A stretch of 39,150 bases of DNA. Origin: Bacteroidales bacterium. Its GTDB lineage: Bacteria > Bacteroidota > Bacteroidia > Bacteroidales > PWNQ01. The position numbers and the translations under genes were made by a program. This document shows, in pieces, positions 32,313 through 39,150 of the stretch. Under the pieces are notes generated by a model. That model was given only the letters and a program-made list of their open reading frames with translations. It was not told the DNA's origin and made no database searches. Each line of letters opens with the position of its first letter. Within the stretch, counting starts at the first letter, position 1. The stretch is taken from assembly GCA_021738505.1 (NCBI GenBank), contig JAIPBW010000028.1, positions 1 through 39,150 on the forward strand, in the 5' to 3' direction.

Positions 32313-32387
32313 GGGATGTTAGCTCAGTTGGTTTAGAGTGCCGCCTTGACAGGGCGGAAGTCACTGGTTCGAATCCAGTACATCCCA
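32313..32387 (+). tRNA. tRNA-Val (anticodon GAC)
   Basis: The acceptor stem GGGATGT (32313-32319) pairs with ACATCCC (32380-32386), discriminator A at 32387. The anticodon stem CCGCC/GGCGG (32341-32345, 32353-32357) holds the loop TTGACAG with anticodon GAC at 32348-32350. The T arm has GGTTCGAATCC. CCA is not encoded. A T-rich stretch follows and may end the transcript. Confidence 0.95.
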
Positions 32388-32620
32388 CTTTCCCTTTTTT
32401 ATTAAGTTATTTTCTTCAAATACATTAGATTTAAGCCATTTGCTTCTCTGAAGATGCCGCGCATGTCCCTGATAAATTGGGGCTGGCTTTGAATAGATTA
32501 CCCTGCTTGCGATTTCTTACGCCTTGTTTTTGATGTGAGTATAATGAATAATACAGGTTAAGTGCATCTGTTTTGATTCTGACTTAGGTCTTTTTTCATA
32601 CTGTTTTCCTTTTACTCTAA

Positions 32621-33232: not shown

Positions 33233-33344
33233 CGCACTATCGCACCTTCGCACTATCGTACTATCGTACTATCGTACTATCGTACTATCGTACTATCGTA
33301 CTATCGTACTATCGTACTATCGTACTATCGTACCTTCGTACTAT
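33233..33344 (+). repeat. 8-bp tandem array, 14 units
   Basis: Fourteen units of CGTACTAT or close variants (CGCACTAT, CGCACCTT, CGTACCTT); the middle nine are identical. Too short a unit, and without spacers, for CRISPR. Confidence 0.95.
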
Positions 33345-33387
33345 CGACTCACAGCTTACTACTCACTACTCACCACTTCCTTCGTAC

Positions 33388-33609
33388 CCCGATGGAATTT
33401 TTTGTAGCGAAGCGAAAAAAAATTACAGAGGGATCTCCCGGCGACACGTCGCAAGTTTTTCTTTCTTCATGTTATCCTGGCCTCATGCTGAGGAGTAGAT
33501 TTAACCGGGATGACAGCATGGTTGCATTTGTATTTTTCTCTTCGGCGGCGGCATTTTGTTTCCTATTTTGCTGCAGAAAAAGTAAAAACACACAAAAGAG
33601 ACGAAGCTT
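33388..33609 (+). repeat. Repeat R2, copy 1 (about 222 bp)
   Basis: Direct copy of 33828-34052, about 90% alike. Its left end lacks the CTGTCATC present in copy 2, being joined instead to the sequence after the 8-bp array. Confidence 0.85.
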
Positions 33610-33645: not shown

Positions 33646-33744
33646 GTACGCTAACAGATTTCTCAGTCGGCTTTTTCTCCGCTCCGCTTCGAAAAAGCCT
33701 CCATCGAAATGACCTCGGGATGGGTGGTTTGGGTGGGAAAAATG
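33646..33744 (-). repeat. Repeat R1, copy 2 (99 bp)
   Basis: Inner stem 33669-33677 with 33691-33699; outer pair ATTTC (33658-33662) with GAAAT (33706-33710). See copy 1. Confidence 0.9.
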
Positions 33745-33793
33745 AAAAAACGGCCACAGCGTATTTAATTTTTAAAGGCGTGGCCGTTTTTTC
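33744..33793. terminator. Strong bidirectional terminator-like hairpin
   Basis: A perfect 14-bp stem, GAAAAAACGGCCAC (33744-33757) with GTGGCCGTTTTTTC (33780-33793), loop of 22. Six A on one side and six T on the other suit termination in both directions, although no gene ends here. Confidence 0.7.
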
Positions 33794-33827
33794 ATTTTTC
33801 CTCTCTACTCACTAAAACCGCTGTCAT

Positions 33828-34052
33828 CCCGATGGAATTTTTTGTAGCGAAGCGGAAAAAAAATTACAGAGGGATCTCCCGGCGACACGTCGCAAGTTTT
33901 TCTTTCTTCATGTTATCCTGGCCTCATGCTGAGGAGTTGATTTAACCGGGATGACAGCATGGTTGCATTTGTATTTTTCTCCTCGGCAGCGGCATCTTTG
34001 TCTATTTTTTTTGCTGCAGGAAAAAGTACAAACATAGAAAAGAAACGAAACT
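33828..34052 (+). repeat. Repeat R2, copy 2 (about 225 bp)
   Basis: Includes ATCCC (33826-33830) pairing with GGGAT (33871-33875) and an inner stem AATTTTTT (33836-33843) with AAAAAATT (33858-33865). CTGTCATCCCG at 33821-33831 is repeated inverted as CGGGATGACAG at 33947-33957, giving 11-bp terminal inverted repeats around 137 bp. Confidence 0.85.
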
Positions 34053-34080: not shown

Positions 34081-34465
34081 TATTGCCAACTGCATTTTGC
34101 CTATTGCCAACTGGCGAAAATACGCTTAGCCAAAGAAAAATTCAAAAATCCCCTGGCACGATTTGGAAAATAGCAGACAGGATCGTACATTTGCTGGTGA
34201 GATGGAAAACAAATCCCATAAACCAGTTAGCCACCAGCCGACGGGCGGACACGGTTTAGGCAATGTCCATATAACGTTAAGCGACTACTGCCGCAAAGAA
34301 GCCGACGGCTTGGGCGTGGTTTATTACAGCCAAATCAACTCCGCCTCGGATTATTATCCATTCGGCCAGCTCCTGACCGATGGAAATTACAGCAGCGGGA
34401 GTTACCGGTTTGGGTTTAACGGGAAAGAAATGGATAACGAGGTGAAAGGCATCGGCAATCAATAT
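34081..34465 (+). repeat. Orphan Rhs module conserved segment, copy 1
   Basis: A 7-bp-phased array (tattgcc, aactgca, ttttgcc, tattgcc, aactggc at 34081-34115) followed by conserved DNA from CGCTTAG (34123) to about 34465, shared with 35949-36325 and 38215-38590. The conserved part is richer in GC than the following variable part. Confidence 0.85.
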
Positions 34466-35293
34466 GATTATGGTTTTAGGATTTATAGTCCGAGGATAGC
34501 GAAGTTCTTAAGTGTAGATCCGTTGACTGCATCCTATCCATGGTTAACTCCTTATCAATTTGGATCTAATACACCTATAGCTGCTATTGACATAGATGGA
34601 CTTGAGGCATACTTATCAATTTATGGTGCAGGAATAGCAAGAAGGCAAGGAAAAACATTTGAACATAATGCATTATTTAAAATGGAATCAGAAAGGGATG
34701 TAAAATGGGGAAATGCAAATTCTTCTCATAATACTTTTAAAGGAAAAAGGTTAATTCAGTTATTGGAGAATAAAACAAAAGAGGAAGGAAGTGTTGGCTA
34801 TTTGTCAGTTTTTTCCCATTCTAATAATTCTAATATAATATTGGATAATGGACAATTTGACAAGCAAACTTTAGGTGTCAGTCAATGGCAAGGATATTCT
34901 CATACTGATTTGGAAACAGTTTTTGAAAATGACAATATTAAATTTCATAGTGATGCTTTAATTCTCTTTGCAGGATGTAATACCGCTAGACAAAAAATAA
35001 ATGGAAAAAAAACAGATAATGTAGCAGAATATATAACAAAAAAATATGGTGTAGCGACTATTGGCGCGGATGGTTATACTTCACCACAAGGATCAAATAA
35101 TTATAGAAAAGCAGATTATAATTATTATCTCTTCATGAAAGATGACAATGGAAATGTTACAAAAACTGAAATGGGCAAGAAATTGAACCCATACACAATT
35201 GAAAGAGCAAGGTTAAAAGTTGATAAACCTGAAGCAATGCCTACTAGGGGGGCTACACAAATTGATATAGATTCACAATCTGATGATGTTTAA
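34202..35293 (+). CDS. Orphan Rhs tip 1 with His/Cys protease-like C-terminus
   Basis: From ATG 34202 the product has 363 residues (a TTG at 34163 would add 13). Residues 1-135 hold the end of an Rhs core: GLGNVHITLSD, SASDYYPFGQLL, YRFGFNGKEMDNEVKG, YDYGFRIYSPRIAKFLSVDP and AAIDIDGLE. No Rhs/YD repeats precede it. The variable part contains YLSVFSHSNNSN (H206) and ALILFAGCNTARQ (C259), then VAEYITKKYGVATIGADGYT. A His, then a Cys after a hydrophobic strand, with ACNT/GCNT, recalls caspase/CHAT-fold peptidases. A toxin role is inferred. No signal peptide or proper upstream start is seen, so the module may be silent until joined to a full rhs gene. The secreted protein gene that follows is the likely immunity gene. 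Confidence 0.72.
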   Translation: MENKSHKPVSHQPTGGHGLGNVHITLSDYCRKEADGLGVVYYSQINSASDYYPFGQLLTDGNYSSGSYRFGFNGKEMDNEVKGIGNQYDYGFRIYSPRIAKFLSVDPLTASYPWLTPYQFGSNTPIAAIDIDGLEAYLSIYGAGIARRQGKTFEHNALFKMESERDVKWGNANSSHNTFKGKRLIQLLENKTKEEGSVGYLSVFSHSNNSNIILDNGQFDKQTLGVSQWQGYSHTDLETVFENDNIKFHSDALILFAGCNTARQKINGKKTDNVAEYITKKYGVATIGADGYTSPQGSNNYRKADYNYYLFMKDDNGNVTKTEMGKKLNPYTIERARLKVDKPEAMPTRGATQIDIDSQSDDV

Positions 35294-35313
35294 TTATAAA
35301 ATGATATAAATAA

Positions 35314-35793
35314 ATGAATAAATCCATACTTATTTTAGTAACTGTATTTACCTTGTCTTTTTTGGATGGACAGTCTCAGGATAACTGTCATAAAACTATG
35401 ATGGATTCTTGTAGACGTTATGTAATTAACTATACTCCAATATATGTAGAGGAAGGGGACAGTCTGGCTGTACCTAAAATACCGGAACCTCCTCCTGCAA
35501 TTAATAAATATTTGTTTAAATGTATAAGGAACTCAAATTATAAACCATTAAAATATTCATATGTTTTACTCGTAAAACAATGCAATATTTATAGATTGGA
35601 CCATATATTAGGGGAGCCGAGATATAAGAATAATGGATTTCTTGAAATGGCCAGGGTATTTTTAGATATAAAAACTTCAAAGGGAAAATATATAACTCCA
35701 TATTTTACATGTCAAATATGCGAAATGTTATATAAAAGGAAGACTGATATTTATGGATTTAGCGAAGCAGAAGAAATTCTGAGTAAAGATTGA
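35314..35793 (+). CDS. Candidate immunity protein for Rhs tip 1
   Basis: A 159-residue protein starting 20 bases after the tip gene, with a signal peptide (MNKSILILVTVFTLSFLDGQSQ) and several Cys residues (DNC, DSC, KC, QC, CQIC). I do not recognise a family. The place directly after an Rhs tip, the AT-rich composition equal to that of the tip's variable part and the small size are as expected for a cognate immunity protein. A periplasmic location would fit a toxin that acts or enters there. No other evidence for binding is available. Confidence 0.6.
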   Translation: MNKSILILVTVFTLSFLDGQSQDNCHKTMMDSCRRYVINYTPIYVEEGDSLAVPKIPEPPPAINKYLFKCIRNSNYKPLKYSYVLLVKQCNIYRLDHILGEPRYKNNGFLEMARVFLDIKTSKGKYITPYFTCQICEMLYKRKTDIYGFSEAEEILSKD

Positions 35794-35940
35794 TAATGGA
35801 AATGTCCCATAGGGGAGAGGGACTTTCCGGTAGTGTATCAAAGGTAACTTTTGGTAAGCATTAATCAACGATTATCAGAATAACGAAGTATCTATTTGAC
35901 TTATTAATTTGGTAAAACATCTTAAAATTTTTCAGGATTG

Positions 35941-36618
35941 ATGCTGCTTATTACCTACTGCACCCTACCAACTGCAACTGTCCAAAGGGCGCTTAGCGAA
36001 GAAAAACCAAAAATCCCCTGGCACGATTTGGAAAATAGCAGGCAGGATTGTACATTTGCTGGTGAGATGGAAAACAAATCCCATAAATCAGGCAGCCACC
36101 AGCCGGTGGACGGACACGGTTTAGGCAATGTCCACATGACGTTAAGCGACTACCGCCGCAAAGAAAAAGACGGCCAGGAAGTAATCTATTACAGCCAAAT
36201 CAACTCCGCCTCGGATCACTACTCATTTGGCATGTTGCTTACCGATGGAAGTTACAGCAGCGGGGATTACCGGTTTGGGTTCCAGGGGCAGGAAATGGAT
36301 AACGAGATCAAAGGCACCGGCAATTCCATCAACTTCAAGTACCGCATGCATGACCCAAGGATAGGAAGGTTCTTTGCGGTGGATCCGCTGGCGAAGAAAT
36401 ATCCCTATAATTCGCCTTATGCTTTTAGTGAGAATGATGTGATTAGAGCTATTGAGTTAGAAGGGTTAGAAAAATACATAATTAATATAATTGGTAAGTC
36501 TGATGGCAAAACAAAAGAAGAAGGAAGAAAAAAAGATGGATGGACATATGATTTAAGAATTCAAAATACACAGGAAAAAACAACTTATGACGTGCCGAGT
36601 TATGAACCAGTCGATTAA
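35941..36618 (+). CDS. Orphan Rhs tip 2 with very short C-terminus
   Basis: A frame of 225 residues from ATG 35941. Residues about 28-175 are Rhs-like: LENSRQDCTFAGEMENKSHK, GLGNVHMTLSD, SASDHYSFGMLL, YRFGFQGQEMDNEIKG, HDPRIGRFFAVDP and NDVIRAIELEGLE. Only about 45 residues (IGKSDGKTKEEGRKKDGWTY onward) follow before the stop, far shorter than tip 1, so the toxin part may be truncated or very small. The first 27 residues come from the 7-bp-phased repeat and are unlikely to be a natural N-terminus; ATG 36067 is an alternative. It overlaps the YwqK-like gene. Confidence 0.6.
   Translation: MLLITYCTLPTATVQRALSEEKPKIPWHDLENSRQDCTFAGEMENKSHKSGSHQPVDGHGLGNVHMTLSDYRRKEKDGQEVIYYSQINSASDHYSFGMLLTDGSYSSGDYRFGFQGQEMDNEIKGTGNSINFKYRMHDPRIGRFFAVDPLAKKYPYNSPYAFSENDVIRAIELEGLEKYIINIIGKSDGKTKEEGRKKDGWTYDLRIQNTQEKTTYDVPSYEPVD
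35949..36325 (+). repeat. Orphan Rhs module conserved segment, copy 2
   Basis: 7-bp-phased units (tattacc, tactgca, ccctacc, aactgca, actgtcc, aaagggc at 35949-35990), then GCTTAG and the shared Rhs segment, ending where the three tips diverge. Confidence 0.85.
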
Positions 36619-37330
36619 GGTAATTAGATGTTTAGTTATTTTAATATCATTGATGATTTTTGTAAATCAAAAAGCATTCACGCAAGAATTAATCAAAACA
36701 AAAACAATTCCAAGTTATTATTATTTTGGGAAAAACCTGAAATTAAATGTAAAATATTTAATGTATGATAGTACAAAGGTTGAGAAGCGCACATATTATA
36801 ACGGAAAATTATTTGAATTAATAACTTTTAAATACGATAAGGATTCCTTGATTCGACATGGTAAAACAATTGAAAATGATACAGCAGGTAGAATGATGAG
36901 CAAAAGTAATTATGAAAATGGAAAAATTAATGGACCGGTTTTTCAGTATTACTGGATAAGTGGCCAAATTCGTGGGGTAAAAATATATGATAATGGAGTA
37001 CTAGATGGTAAATTTTTTAATTTTTATTCAAATGGCAATGTTAAAATTGAAGGTCAATTCGAAGAAGGCTTGAAAACAGGGATTTGGAAATATTATTATA
37101 AAAATGGATATTTACAAGCTATTGGTAAATTTGCTAAAACAAATAATAAGGCCTGGAAGAGAGATAGTATACCTTTCAAGTTTTTTAGTGATACATGTCA
37201 AACTTCAAACTTTACGCCTCATGATTTAAAGTATAAAAGTATTGAACCTCAACTTAAAAAAGGCTTATGGCGTTTTTATGATTGTAAGGGCAAAATGATT
37301 GGAAAACATAATTATAGAGAGTATAAATGA
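36602..37330 (+). CDS. YwqK/MORN-type repeat protein, candidate immunity protein for Rhs tip 2
   Basis: A 242-residue protein from ATG 36602 with a signal peptide (MNQSIKVIRCLVILISLMIF...). The mature part has recurring MORN-like units: YYNGKLFELITF, YENGKINGPVFQYY, YDNGVLDGKFFNFY, QFEEGLKTGIWKYYY, LKKGLWRFYDCKGK. In the 'YwqK family antitoxin' group such repeats accompany polymorphic toxins. It begins 17 bases before the tip 2 stop codon in another frame; an in-frame ATG at 36587 is also possible. The signal peptide puts the protein outside the cytoplasm, as with the first candidate immunity protein. Confidence 0.7.
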   Translation: MNQSIKVIRCLVILISLMIFVNQKAFTQELIKTKTIPSYYYFGKNLKLNVKYLMYDSTKVEKRTYYNGKLFELITFKYDKDSLIRHGKTIENDTAGRMMSKSNYENGKINGPVFQYYWISGQIRGVKIYDNGVLDGKFFNFYSNGNVKIEGQFEEGLKTGIWKYYYKNGYLQAIGKFAKTNNKAWKRDSIPFKFFSDTCQTSNFTPHDLKYKSIEPQLKKGLWRFYDCKGKMIGKHNYREYK

Positions 37331-37373
37331 ATGAGGTTATTTGCCAGTTGGATAACAGTATAGATTAACCCAA

Positions 37374-37439
37374 AATAGCTATAATTTCGTGGCGCGGATT
37401 TATGATCTGAGGATTGTGCGATGGTTGAGGGTAATTCCT
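37374..37439 (+). pseudogene. Remnant of an Rhs core (third module)
   Basis: In one frame the DNA reads NSYNFVARIYDLRIVRWLRV, clearly a worn form of the Rhs motif found as 'YDFGARIYDPRIGRWLSVDP' in intact proteins. The upstream part of the core is missing, and downstream the frame runs directly into the immunity-like gene. The conserved 340-bp segment is absent here. Confidence 0.65.
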
Positions 37440-37463
37440 TTTAGTAAAATAATAATTAGAATT

Positions 37464-38158
37464 ATGAGTTGGTACAATTTAAAAAGGATGTGGTATATTT
37501 TTTTACTATTATTTTTAATTAGTTTAATGTCAGGGGGTGCTCTACGTATGAACGTAAGTTAGAGTTTAAAAAGAGTTATAAGCTTTATTCGAATATCCAC
37601 AGAAATAAGAAAAATTTAAAATATTTATTTAATACTGAAATTCTATTCCAGAATCGAGGAGAATTTGCTACTGATCAAAATTGTGCCAGAGTTTCCTTTA
37701 ACGTTAAGGCGCTTGACTCTGTTTTTTCAGATAGTATTAATGGAAAAATAAAACTATTTTATGTATTTGATAATTACGATAATCTAAATACCTATAGTAT
37801 AAATCTTTCATCTTCAAATATATATGGTTTAGATAGTAATGTATTTAATGATCAGAAAATGATAAAACGGTTCAAGTATATAGGTTACAAGGTCATTAAT
37901 GCCAGGATTTGTGCACTAAGTAAATCTAATCCATTTAAAGGGTATGATAATTGGATAATGTTTCATTATCAACCTGGTACAGCAATTCATTACTATAAAA
38001 ATGAACCTCCTTCAAATGTAGATGTATCGACACCAAATTTCATTAAACTTAAGGATCATTGGTATTTTTATAGTAAAGATATAGAAAATGAGAAACAAAA
38101 GAAAAAATTACAAAATATTTTGAAAAAGCAACAACGGTCTCATACGCACTGCCAATAA
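37464..38158 (+). pseudogene. Frameshifted lipoprotein, candidate immunity gene of the third Rhs module
   Basis: The ATG at 37464 opens a frame MSWYNLKRMWYIFLLLFLIS... that stops at 37561-37563. The frame one base over is open without a stop from the G run at 37533-37537 to 38158. Joining them at this G5 run (one G more or two fewer) makes a lipobox, LMSG(G)CST, exactly at the join, and a lipoprotein of about 231 residues. The mature part (KLYSNIHRNKKNLKYLFN, IKLFYVFDNYDNLNTYS, DNWIMFHYQPGTAIHYY) is not a family I recognise. Position after an Rhs remnant suggests an immunity gene that lost its toxin. A sequencing error, decay or slippage switch would all explain the break. Confidence 0.65.
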
Positions 38159-38214
38159 ACAGTCCTTAGTTTCTTATTATTACTTTTTATTCAAAAGTAG
38201 CAGCTACACAGCCC

Positions 38215-38590
38215 TATTGCCTGCCTCCTGCCAACCGGCCAAAGGTGCTTAGGCAAAGAAAAATCAGGAATTCCCTGGCCGGATTTGGAAAATAGCAGGC
38301 AGGATCGTACATTTGCTGGTGAGATGGAAAACAAATCCCATAAACCAGTTAGCCACCAGCCGGCGGGCGGAGACGGCTTAGGCAATGTCCACCTCACCCT
38401 AAGCGACTACCGCCGCAAAAAAGAAGCCGACGGCCAGGAAGTAATCTATTACAGCCAAATCAACTCCGCCTCGGATTATTATCCATTCGGCCAGCTCCTG
38501 ACCGATGGAAATTACAGCAGCGGGGATTACCGGTTTGGGTTTAATTCCCAGGAAAAAGACGATGAGATTTACGGACAGGGAAACAGCTAC
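38215..38590 (+). repeat. Orphan Rhs module conserved segment, copy 3
   Basis: 7-bp-phased start (tattgcc, tgcctcc, tgccaac at 38215-38235), then GCTTAG at 38247 and the shared Rhs segment to about 38590. Confidence 0.85.
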
Positions 38591-39025
38591 AGCGCAGAGT
38601 TTTGGCAGTATGACGCGAGGTTGGGGAGAAGGTGGAATGTGGATCCGGTAAATAAACCTCATGAAAGCTCCTATGCATCATTTGCAAATAATCCGTTTTG
38701 GTTTGTTGATCCTGTTGGTTTAGATACTGTTGAAATCTCCTCAGAAAAAGGAGAGATAGAAAACCATATAGAAACAAAAGAGGGAGATGATGTATTTTTC
38801 ATTATGGAAGATGGTAAAAGAAAAGAATCAAGAACATTTGATGATGGTTTTATTGAAAATATTGATGAAGATATCCTTGATAATGATGGTGATGTTTATC
38901 GTTTAAGAGGAGATGATGATTCACAAGAATTGTTTGAATTTTATGCAGATAATATAGAGATTGAATTTTCTTTAACTAGAACCGGAAAAGAAGGAACTAA
39001 AGGGTTGAATTTTGAGACTGTTTAA
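38324..39025 (+). CDS. Orphan Rhs tip 3, probably cut by an insertion element
   Basis: A 233-residue product from ATG 38324 (a TTG at 38285 would add 13). The Rhs core end reads GLGNVHLTLSDYRRKKEADG, SASDYYPFGQLL, YRFGFNSQEKDDEIYG, AEFWQYDARLGRRWNVDP and FWFVDPVGLD. The variable part is acidic: VEISSEKGEIENHIETK, DGDVYRLRGDDDSQELFEFY, ADNIEIEFSLTRTGKEGTKG, then LNFETV and stop. The last segment resembles the lead-in of JAB-like Rhs toxins, whose HxH...P metal motif would come later but is missing. A probable transposase starts 50 bp downstream, so the tip was likely truncated by insertion. No immunity gene is in the window. Confidence 0.62.
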   Translation: MENKSHKPVSHQPAGGDGLGNVHLTLSDYRRKKEADGQEVIYYSQINSASDYYPFGQLLTDGNYSSGDYRFGFNSQEKDDEIYGQGNSYSAEFWQYDARLGRRWNVDPVNKPHESSYASFANNPFWFVDPVGLDTVEISSEKGEIENHIETKEGDDVFFIMEDGKRKESRTFDDGFIENIDEDILDNDGDVYRLRGDDDSQELFEFYADNIEIEFSLTRTGKEGTKGLNFETV

Positions 39026-39035
39026 AAAAGTGTGT

Positions 39036-39070
39036 CAAAGTTAAATTAAAATAAGAATTTTAACTTTGAA
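39036..39070. other. Inverted repeat beside a probable insertion-element end
   Basis: TCAAAGTTAAA (39036-39046) pairs with TTTAACTTTGA (39060-39070). It lies between the tip 3 stop codon and the ATG at 39075, where the end of an insertion element would be expected; the exact element edge is not known. Confidence 0.45.
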
Positions 39071-39074
39071 AAAT

Positions 39075-39150
39075 ATGGTACGCAAAAAAGAAAAAAGAAA
39101 ATTAAAAGATTTAATACCAGATGACCACTTGCGAGAAGAAGTGACACGAC
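39075..39150 (+). CDS. Start of a probable transposase (cut by window edge)
   Basis: Only 25 codons are present: MVRKKEKRKLKDLIPDDHLR and five more residues. A basic start followed by 'L..LIPD..L' recalls the N-terminus of IS4-type transposases of Bacteroidota. The judgement is from memory of similar proteins and is weak by itself, but the truncation of the Rhs tip just upstream and the inverted repeat support a mobile element. Confidence 0.4.
   Translation, partial: MVRKKEKRKLKDLIPDDHLREEVTR

What the first reader, a model, noticed from the sequence alone, without database searches (positions are those of the whole stretch)
34081..39025. Archive of orphan Rhs C-terminal tips sharing one 340-bp recombination-sized segment
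Three copies of the same Rhs core end, each with its own 7-bp-phased leader, are joined to three unrelated C-termini; two have a secreted candidate immunity gene behind them, and a fourth, decayed module lies between. No YD repeats, secretion signals or proper promoters precede them. This is the layout of displaced rhs tips that can replace the active tip of a full-length rhs gene by homologous recombination, a route described for Enterobacteria Rhs/CDI systems. The conserved part is GC-richer than the tips, as expected for horizontally exchanged ends.
Basis: partly seen in the sequence, partly recalled or inferred. Interest (0 to 1): 0.72.

Follow-up and report, generated by a model that had tools for sequence, protein, structure and literature searches.

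The report
Orphan Rhs toxin cassettes with promoter-like leaders
A bacterium of the phylum Bacteroidota carries a row of spare toxin ends from Rhs weapon proteins, a known kind of arrangement, but here each spare end has the same strongly conserved piece of DNA in front of it that looks like a working promoter and start codon, so the spares may be switched on rather than silent.

Summary
Three copies of one Rhs core end (34.1, 36.0, 38.3 kb) carry unrelated C-termini; a fourth copy lies on contig C45. The shared stretch (~290 bp) ends at the codons for YRFGF. Beyond that point modules stop resembling each other (47-62% nt) and resemble tips of other families instead (71-79% aa): recombinant mosaics. 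Toxin/immunity cassettes of this kind are known and occur in 29 of 60 sampled relatives.

Two corrections. First, the leader is not promoterless. Its most conserved 63 nt (2 variable sites in four copies; 17 of 54 third codon positions vary in the adjacent core) hold TTTG-N20-TACATTTG, the Bacteroidota promoter consensus, ~35-fold enriched upstream of this genome's genes; an in-frame ATG follows 8 nt later. Second, no full-length rhs gene was found in the 89%-complete assembly, so the archive role is unproven.

Only module 1 looks whole: module 2's tip is ~50 aa, module 3's Toxin-JAB1 is cut by an insertion sequence, another module is decayed. Best reading: mostly degraded orphan cassettes, each with its own promoter, probably kept for exported immunity proteins. 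Expression and immunity are inferred, not shown.

The parts
32313..32388 (+). tRNA-Val (GAC) gene upstream of the module region; possible island insertion site, no repeat of its 3' end found in the window
34125..34201 (+). Module 1 non-coding leader: CTTAG boundary, then near-invariant block from 34160 with -33 TTTG (34162-34165) and -7 TACATTTG (34186-34193)
34202..35293 (+). Module 1 Rhs orphan tip ORF from the in-frame ATG: shared core to YRFGF (34417), core end to about 34603, then tip with H and C residues shared with a distant homologue (caspase-like reading tentative)
35314..35793 (+). Module 1 candidate immunity gene, 159 aa, signal-peptide-like N-terminus, no homologue found in 393 genomes of the order
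35992..36066 (+). Module 2 leader with the same promoter-like block (36025-36066; -33 TTTG 36027-36030, -7 TACATTTG 36051-36058)
36067..36618 (+). Module 2 Rhs orphan: shared core to YRFGF (36282), core end, and only about 50 aa of tip (probably truncated)
36602..37330 (+). Module 2 candidate immunity gene, signal-peptide-like N-terminus, weak MORN_2 repeats (below Pfam cut-off)
37331..38170 (+). Decayed module: core-end remnant (VARIYDLRIVRWLRV, about 37389) and a frame-broken secreted gene
38248..38323 (+). Module 3 leader with the same promoter-like block (38282-38323)
38324..39013 (+). Module 3 Rhs orphan: shared core to YRFGF (38542), core end, Toxin-JAB1 tip (PF15659 positions 2-39 of 87) cut off by the insertion sequence
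39014..39150 (+). Left end of a multicopy insertion sequence (GAGACTGTT...), at least 7 copies in the genome; the contig ends inside it

Best explanation
The region is a small, mostly degraded array of orphan Rhs toxin/immunity cassettes (standalone toxin cassettes of a polymorphic toxin system). Each cassette was built by homologous recombination inside the conserved stretch between LGNV and YRFGF: a lineage-specific leader and core start stay, and an exchangeable core end + tip + immunity gene is attached. Each leader carries its own housekeeping-type promoter and an ATG, so the cassette is probably transcribed without a full-length rhs gene in front. The most likely present benefit is production of exported immunity proteins against Rhs toxins of other strains, with the unsecreted toxin half harmless in the cytoplasm because its target is probably in the envelope. 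Reloading a full-length rhs gene is possible but has no demonstrated recipient here. Shown: cassette layout, mosaic boundary, leader constraint, promoter consensus and its enrichment in this genome, no rhs/YD gene in the assembly. Inferred: transcription, immunity function, periplasmic target, and recombination as the mechanism behind the mosaic.
For: Layout and family. Mosaic: within-array aa identity is 78-86% before YRFGF; after it the best matches are in other families (71-79%) and own-array identity is at most 48%; module 2 and C45 are 86% nt identical before and 93% after the boundary. Coding constraint on the core (pN/pS 0.20-0.40) but little on the leader after the ATG (ratio mostly 0.5-1.2, few sites). 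Leader block: 2 of 63 sites vary versus 17 of 54 third positions (p 3e-5), 6 of 15 fourfold sites (p 4e-4) and 10 of the next 36 nt (p 6e-4). Promoter: TTTG-N20-TACATTTG in all copies; in 148 upstream regions of this genome TAnnTTTG occurs 73 times versus 14.3 in shuffles, and the full motif 12 times (2 of them these modules) versus 0.29, commonest spacing 20. The consensus is that of sigma-ABfr (PMC7366714). Relatives: 29 of 60 genomes have Rhs core ends; strings of up to about a dozen cassettes, most with a secreted-type partner gene, some with known toxin domains.
Against: No transcript data. The motif ends 8 nt before the ATG, so the 5' UTR would be very short; in B. thetaiotaomicron only about 3.7% of 5' UTRs are under 10 nt (PMC7366714), though 7 of the 73 TAnnTTTG sites in this genome lie that close to an ATG (up to 2 of these are the modules). 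Recent gene conversion could also keep the block uniform. Most other genomes' orphan leaders lack the full consensus. The immunity genes are assigned by position and signal peptide only; the module 1 partner had no homologue in 393 genomes. A missing main rhs gene could simply be unassembled.
Confidence: 0.6

Rival explanations
1. Silent archive: untranscribed spare tips that reload a full-length rhs gene elsewhere in the same genome by homologous recombination, as shown for Salmonella.
For: Shared core segment with a sharp exchange boundary; some relatives have arrays directly behind a large rhs gene; 89% completeness leaves room for an unassembled gene.
Against: No rhs pre-core or YD repeat in the own assembly; the shared segment starts with a lineage-specific non-coding leader, so only about 160 bp of true core is left for recombination; leader constraint and promoter consensus.
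Confidence: 0.2
2. Plain relic: leftovers of a lost rhs locus, duplicated with their leader and now decaying, with no current function.
For: Module 2 truncated, one module decayed, module 3 cut by an insertion sequence; no conserved position in the genus.
Against: Core differences between copies are mostly silent (pN/pS 0.2-0.4, though part may date from before duplication), leader block under DNA constraint, module 1 and two partner genes still open.
Confidence: 0.17
3. Mobile cassette: the leader is a boundary or recombination site by which single modules are inserted at new places.
For: The C45 copy starts at the same CTTAG boundary directly at the rmuC stop codon; a tRNA-Val stands upstream of the window array; two tandem tyrosine recombinase genes flank the G029 array.
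Against: No recombinase gene in the window region, no repeat of the tRNA 3' end, no defined right end, no copy of the leader without a core, no match in the public genome or viral scans.
Confidence: 0.03

Closest known systems
Orphan rhs-CT/rhsI modules of Enterobacteria (dissociated rhs tips; Jackson 2009 PMC2935791, Poole 2011 PMC3150448, Koskiniemi 2014 PMC3967940)
   Same: Fragments of the conserved Rhs core joined to unrelated tips, with small partner genes, in strings; core GC-richer than tips; insertion sequences in some modules of the analogous CDI arrays.
   Different: Those usually lack translation initiation signals and sit behind a main rhs gene; here each copy has a conserved leader with a promoter consensus and an ATG, and no main gene was found. 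The exchange boundary is YRFGF, upstream of the core-end/DPxGL equivalent.
Standalone toxin cassettes of polymorphic toxin systems, including Bacteroidetes (Zhang 2012 PMC3482391)
   Same: Toxin domain plus adjacent immunity gene without trafficking domains; Tox-JAB-1 is listed there as Bacteroidetes-only, on RHS proteins, with an immunity partner (Imm65) that has a signal peptide and lipobox.
   Different: No statement about own promoters or lineage-specific repeated leaders was found in the passages read.
Orphan cdiA-CT/cdiI modules of CDI systems (Poole 2011 PMC3150448)
   Same: Arrays of tip/immunity modules; in E. coli EC93 the orphan immunity protein is produced although the orphan toxin is not.
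   Different: Different delivery protein; transcription there comes from the upstream main locus, here apparently from each module's leader.

Membership tests
Standalone cassettes of polymorphic toxin systems (Zhang 2012) | C-terminal toxin domain without N-terminal trafficking parts | tested here: met
   Module 3 matches Toxin-JAB1 above the Pfam cut-off; the ORFs have no YD repeats or signal peptide
Standalone cassettes of polymorphic toxin systems (Zhang 2012) | Adjacent immunity gene | tested here: inconclusive
   Two of three modules have a small secreted-type gene behind them; neutralisation not tested, module 1 partner has no homologue in 393 genomes
Standalone cassettes of polymorphic toxin systems (Zhang 2012) | Same toxin domain occurs on full-length toxins elsewhere | tested here: met
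   Tip-1 homologue (26% identity, shared H and C) at the end of a 2953-aa Rhs with a signal peptide in G148
Enterobacterial orphan rhs-CT modules | Fragment of conserved Rhs core fused to unrelated tips, in strings | tested here: met
Enterobacterial orphan rhs-CT modules | Located downstream of a main rhs gene with the same core | tested here: inconclusive
   None in the window or the 89%-complete assembly; the assembly is fragmented at repeats
Enterobacterial orphan rhs-CT modules | Lack of translation initiation signals (usual) | tested here: not met
   In-frame ATG and promoter consensus in a near-invariant leader
Enterobacterial orphan rhs-CT modules | Can recombine onto the main gene and be deployed | not testable with these tools
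   Needs strains and passage experiments

The most novel reading that the evidence does not exclude
In some Bacteroidota, orphan Rhs cassettes have become self-standing expression units: recombination keeps delivering new tip/immunity pairs behind a fixed, selected promoter leader, so the array works as an expressed, renewable immunity collection in cells that no longer own the Rhs weapon.
Probability: 0.25. Interest if true: 0.6.

Novelty: new variant of a known kind. Interest (0 to 1): 0.36.

Why it matters
Why orphan toxin tips are kept is an open question raised by the CDI/Rhs papers themselves. A conserved promoter at the head of each cassette, in a genome with no detectable main gene, would favour 'expressed immunity stock' over 'silent spare parts', and it can be tested with one reporter fusion and one RNA-seq run. 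The sharp YRFGF exchange boundary also gives a simple sequence marker for such cassettes in Bacteroidota.

Tried and rejected
Caspase-like fold for tip 1: the AlphaFold model is poor (pLDDT 48.5) and Foldseek and PDB sequence searches gave nothing useful; the only hints are DUF4347 at E 0.11 and shared H and C residues. A universal promoter in all Bacteroidales orphan leaders: rejected, most lack the full consensus. Same-genus G002 leaders do have a TATTTTTG box at a similar distance in an unusually conserved stretch, suggestive only. Coding function of the leader upstream of the ATG: rejected, single-base indels. Leader as an RNA element: no Rfam match there. Leader found elsewhere: none in public genomes or viral contigs. 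Shared relic at a fixed place in the genus: rejected. tRNA-bounded island: no repeat of the tRNA 3' end in the window.

Full report
Setting. The window is the whole contig C54 of a 3.06-Mb, 113-contig draft genome, 89.3% complete. The finding lies at the right end of the contig, behind a sugar-nucleotide aminotransferase gene and a tRNA-Val; the contig stops inside a multicopy insertion sequence.

Observation. Three copies of one segment start at 34125, 35992 and 38248. A fourth is at G000:C45:26-348 on the minus strand, its CTTAG boundary coinciding with the stop codon of rmuC. The segment has three parts. (i) A non-coding leader from CTTAG to an ATG (34202, 36067, 38324). (ii) A coding core from LGNV to YRFGF, open in all copies, with a 3-base insertion in module 3 that keeps the frame. 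(iii) After YRFGF, unlike sequence. Modules 1 and 2 match the RHS core model TIGR03696 above its cut-off; module 3 falls just below. GC content falls stepwise from the shared part (48-50.5%) to the tips (about 30%), as described for enterobacterial rhs (PMC2935791).

State of the modules. Module 1 is whole: a 363-aa product from the ATG and a 159-aa partner with a signal-like N-terminus. Module 2 has only about 50 aa of tip before an overlapping secreted-type gene with weak MORN_2 repeats. A decayed module follows (37331-38170). Module 3 carries a Toxin-JAB1 domain that stops at position 39 of 87 where the insertion sequence begins (39014); at least seven copies of that end occur in the genome with unrelated flanks. 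The two sides of that insertion were not linked, in keeping with the rules.

Mosaic structure. Between LGNV and YRFGF the four copies are 83-91% identical in DNA with pN/pS 0.20-0.40; after it modules 1, 2 and 3 are 47-62% identical. Comparison with tips from nine other genomes shows the switch: before the boundary each module is closest to its own neighbours (78-86%; next best 47-51%, from the same genus); after it each is closest to a tip of another family (71-79%), own neighbours at most 48%. Module 2 and C45 share the same core end (93% nt). In G029 many cassette pairs show the same switch (for example 86% before, 35% after). This is what exchange of tips by recombination within the core would leave; the exchange itself was not observed.

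Leader. The best conserved part is not the core but 63 nt around the ATG: 2 variable sites among four copies, against 17 of 54 third codon positions and 6 of 15 fourfold sites in the adjacent core, and 10 of the next 36 nt (Fisher p 3e-5, 4e-4, 6e-4). It holds TTTG-N20-TACATTTG followed 8 nt later by the ATG. This is the consensus of the Bacteroidetes primary sigma factor (TTTG at -33, TAnnTTTG at -7; PMC7366714). To check that this genome uses it, 148 intergenic upstream regions from 413 kb of the same genome were scanned: TAnnTTTG occurs 73 times against 14.3 in shuffles and 28 on the other strand, concentrated within 50 nt of the ATG; the full motif occurs 12 times (two are these modules) against 0.29, most often with spacing 20; it is about 25 times denser upstream than inside genes. 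Caveat: the implied 5' UTR is a few nucleotides, uncommon in B. thetaiotaomicron. Gene conversion is the alternative cause of uniformity, but it would have to stop sharply at the edges of the block.

Is there a main rhs gene? TIGR03696 finds the three modules and one orphan of another Rhs lineage on C34. YD-repeat model TIGR01643 finds nothing. A profile of the 400 aa before the core, from five rhs genes of relatives, finds nothing in this genome or in same-genus G002, but finds a broken rhs piece in same-genus G001 and long genes in several others. So either the gene is absent or it was not assembled. That profile missed the 1030-aa rhs of G020, so it does not cover all rhs types.

Relatives. 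29 of 60 sampled relatives have Rhs core ends. G029 holds a string of about a dozen cassettes on one contig, most followed by a secreted-type gene, with Tox-MPTase3, Peptidase_M91 and OmpA domains among the tips and no large rhs gene in the stretch read. G020 and G028 have cassettes behind large rhs genes. In several genomes the cassettes share a leader particular to that genome, joined near HLGNV or YRFGF. Two same-genus G002 cassettes on different contigs share about 200 bp of almost identical leader with a TATTTTTG box and a single-base indel just before the core. Tip 1 itself is rare; a 26% identical domain ends a 2953-aa Rhs with a signal peptide and a lipoprotein gene behind it in G148. 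Behind the homologue of the neighbouring aminotransferase gene, G001 and G002 have neither tRNA-Val nor modules.

Verdict. A real set of orphan Rhs toxin/immunity cassettes, ordinary in kind, mostly degraded, with two points of interest: a conserved promoter-like leader per cassette, and no detectable main gene. Archive for reloading: possible, unproven. Expressed immunity stock: favoured, unproven.

Noticed in passing
33388-33570 and 33828-34008: A 183-bp intergenic repeat in two copies (96% identical), with weaker relatives on contigs C2 and C5; a 99-bp element (33064, 33646) is interleaved. REP/MITE-like, origin unknown.
   Followed up: partly
33245-33350: About a dozen head-to-tail copies of the 8-mer TACTATCG in the intergenic stretch after the tRNA-Val.
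   Followed up: no
33727-33820: A long hairpin (AAAAACGGCCACAGC...GCGTGGCCGTTTTT) that looks like a strong terminator; Rfam only gave weak microRNA hits below cut-off.
   Followed up: no
L046 43-1644 and L079 7851-9641 (G029:C77): Two tandem tyrosine recombinase genes lie directly at one end of the dozen-cassette Rhs array and a transposase-like gene at the other; could be involved in moving cassettes.
   Followed up: no
L010 3788-5116 (G000:C34): A further orphan Rhs tip of a different Rhs lineage (442 aa) with a small gene behind it, near a contig end after a mutS-like gene.
   Followed up: partly
L054 (G020:C34): Orphan tips behind a 1030-aa rhs gene keep an identical short core start with an in-frame ATG (CCCGCCATGAAAACCACC...), another hint that orphan tips in this order keep start codons.
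   Followed up: no
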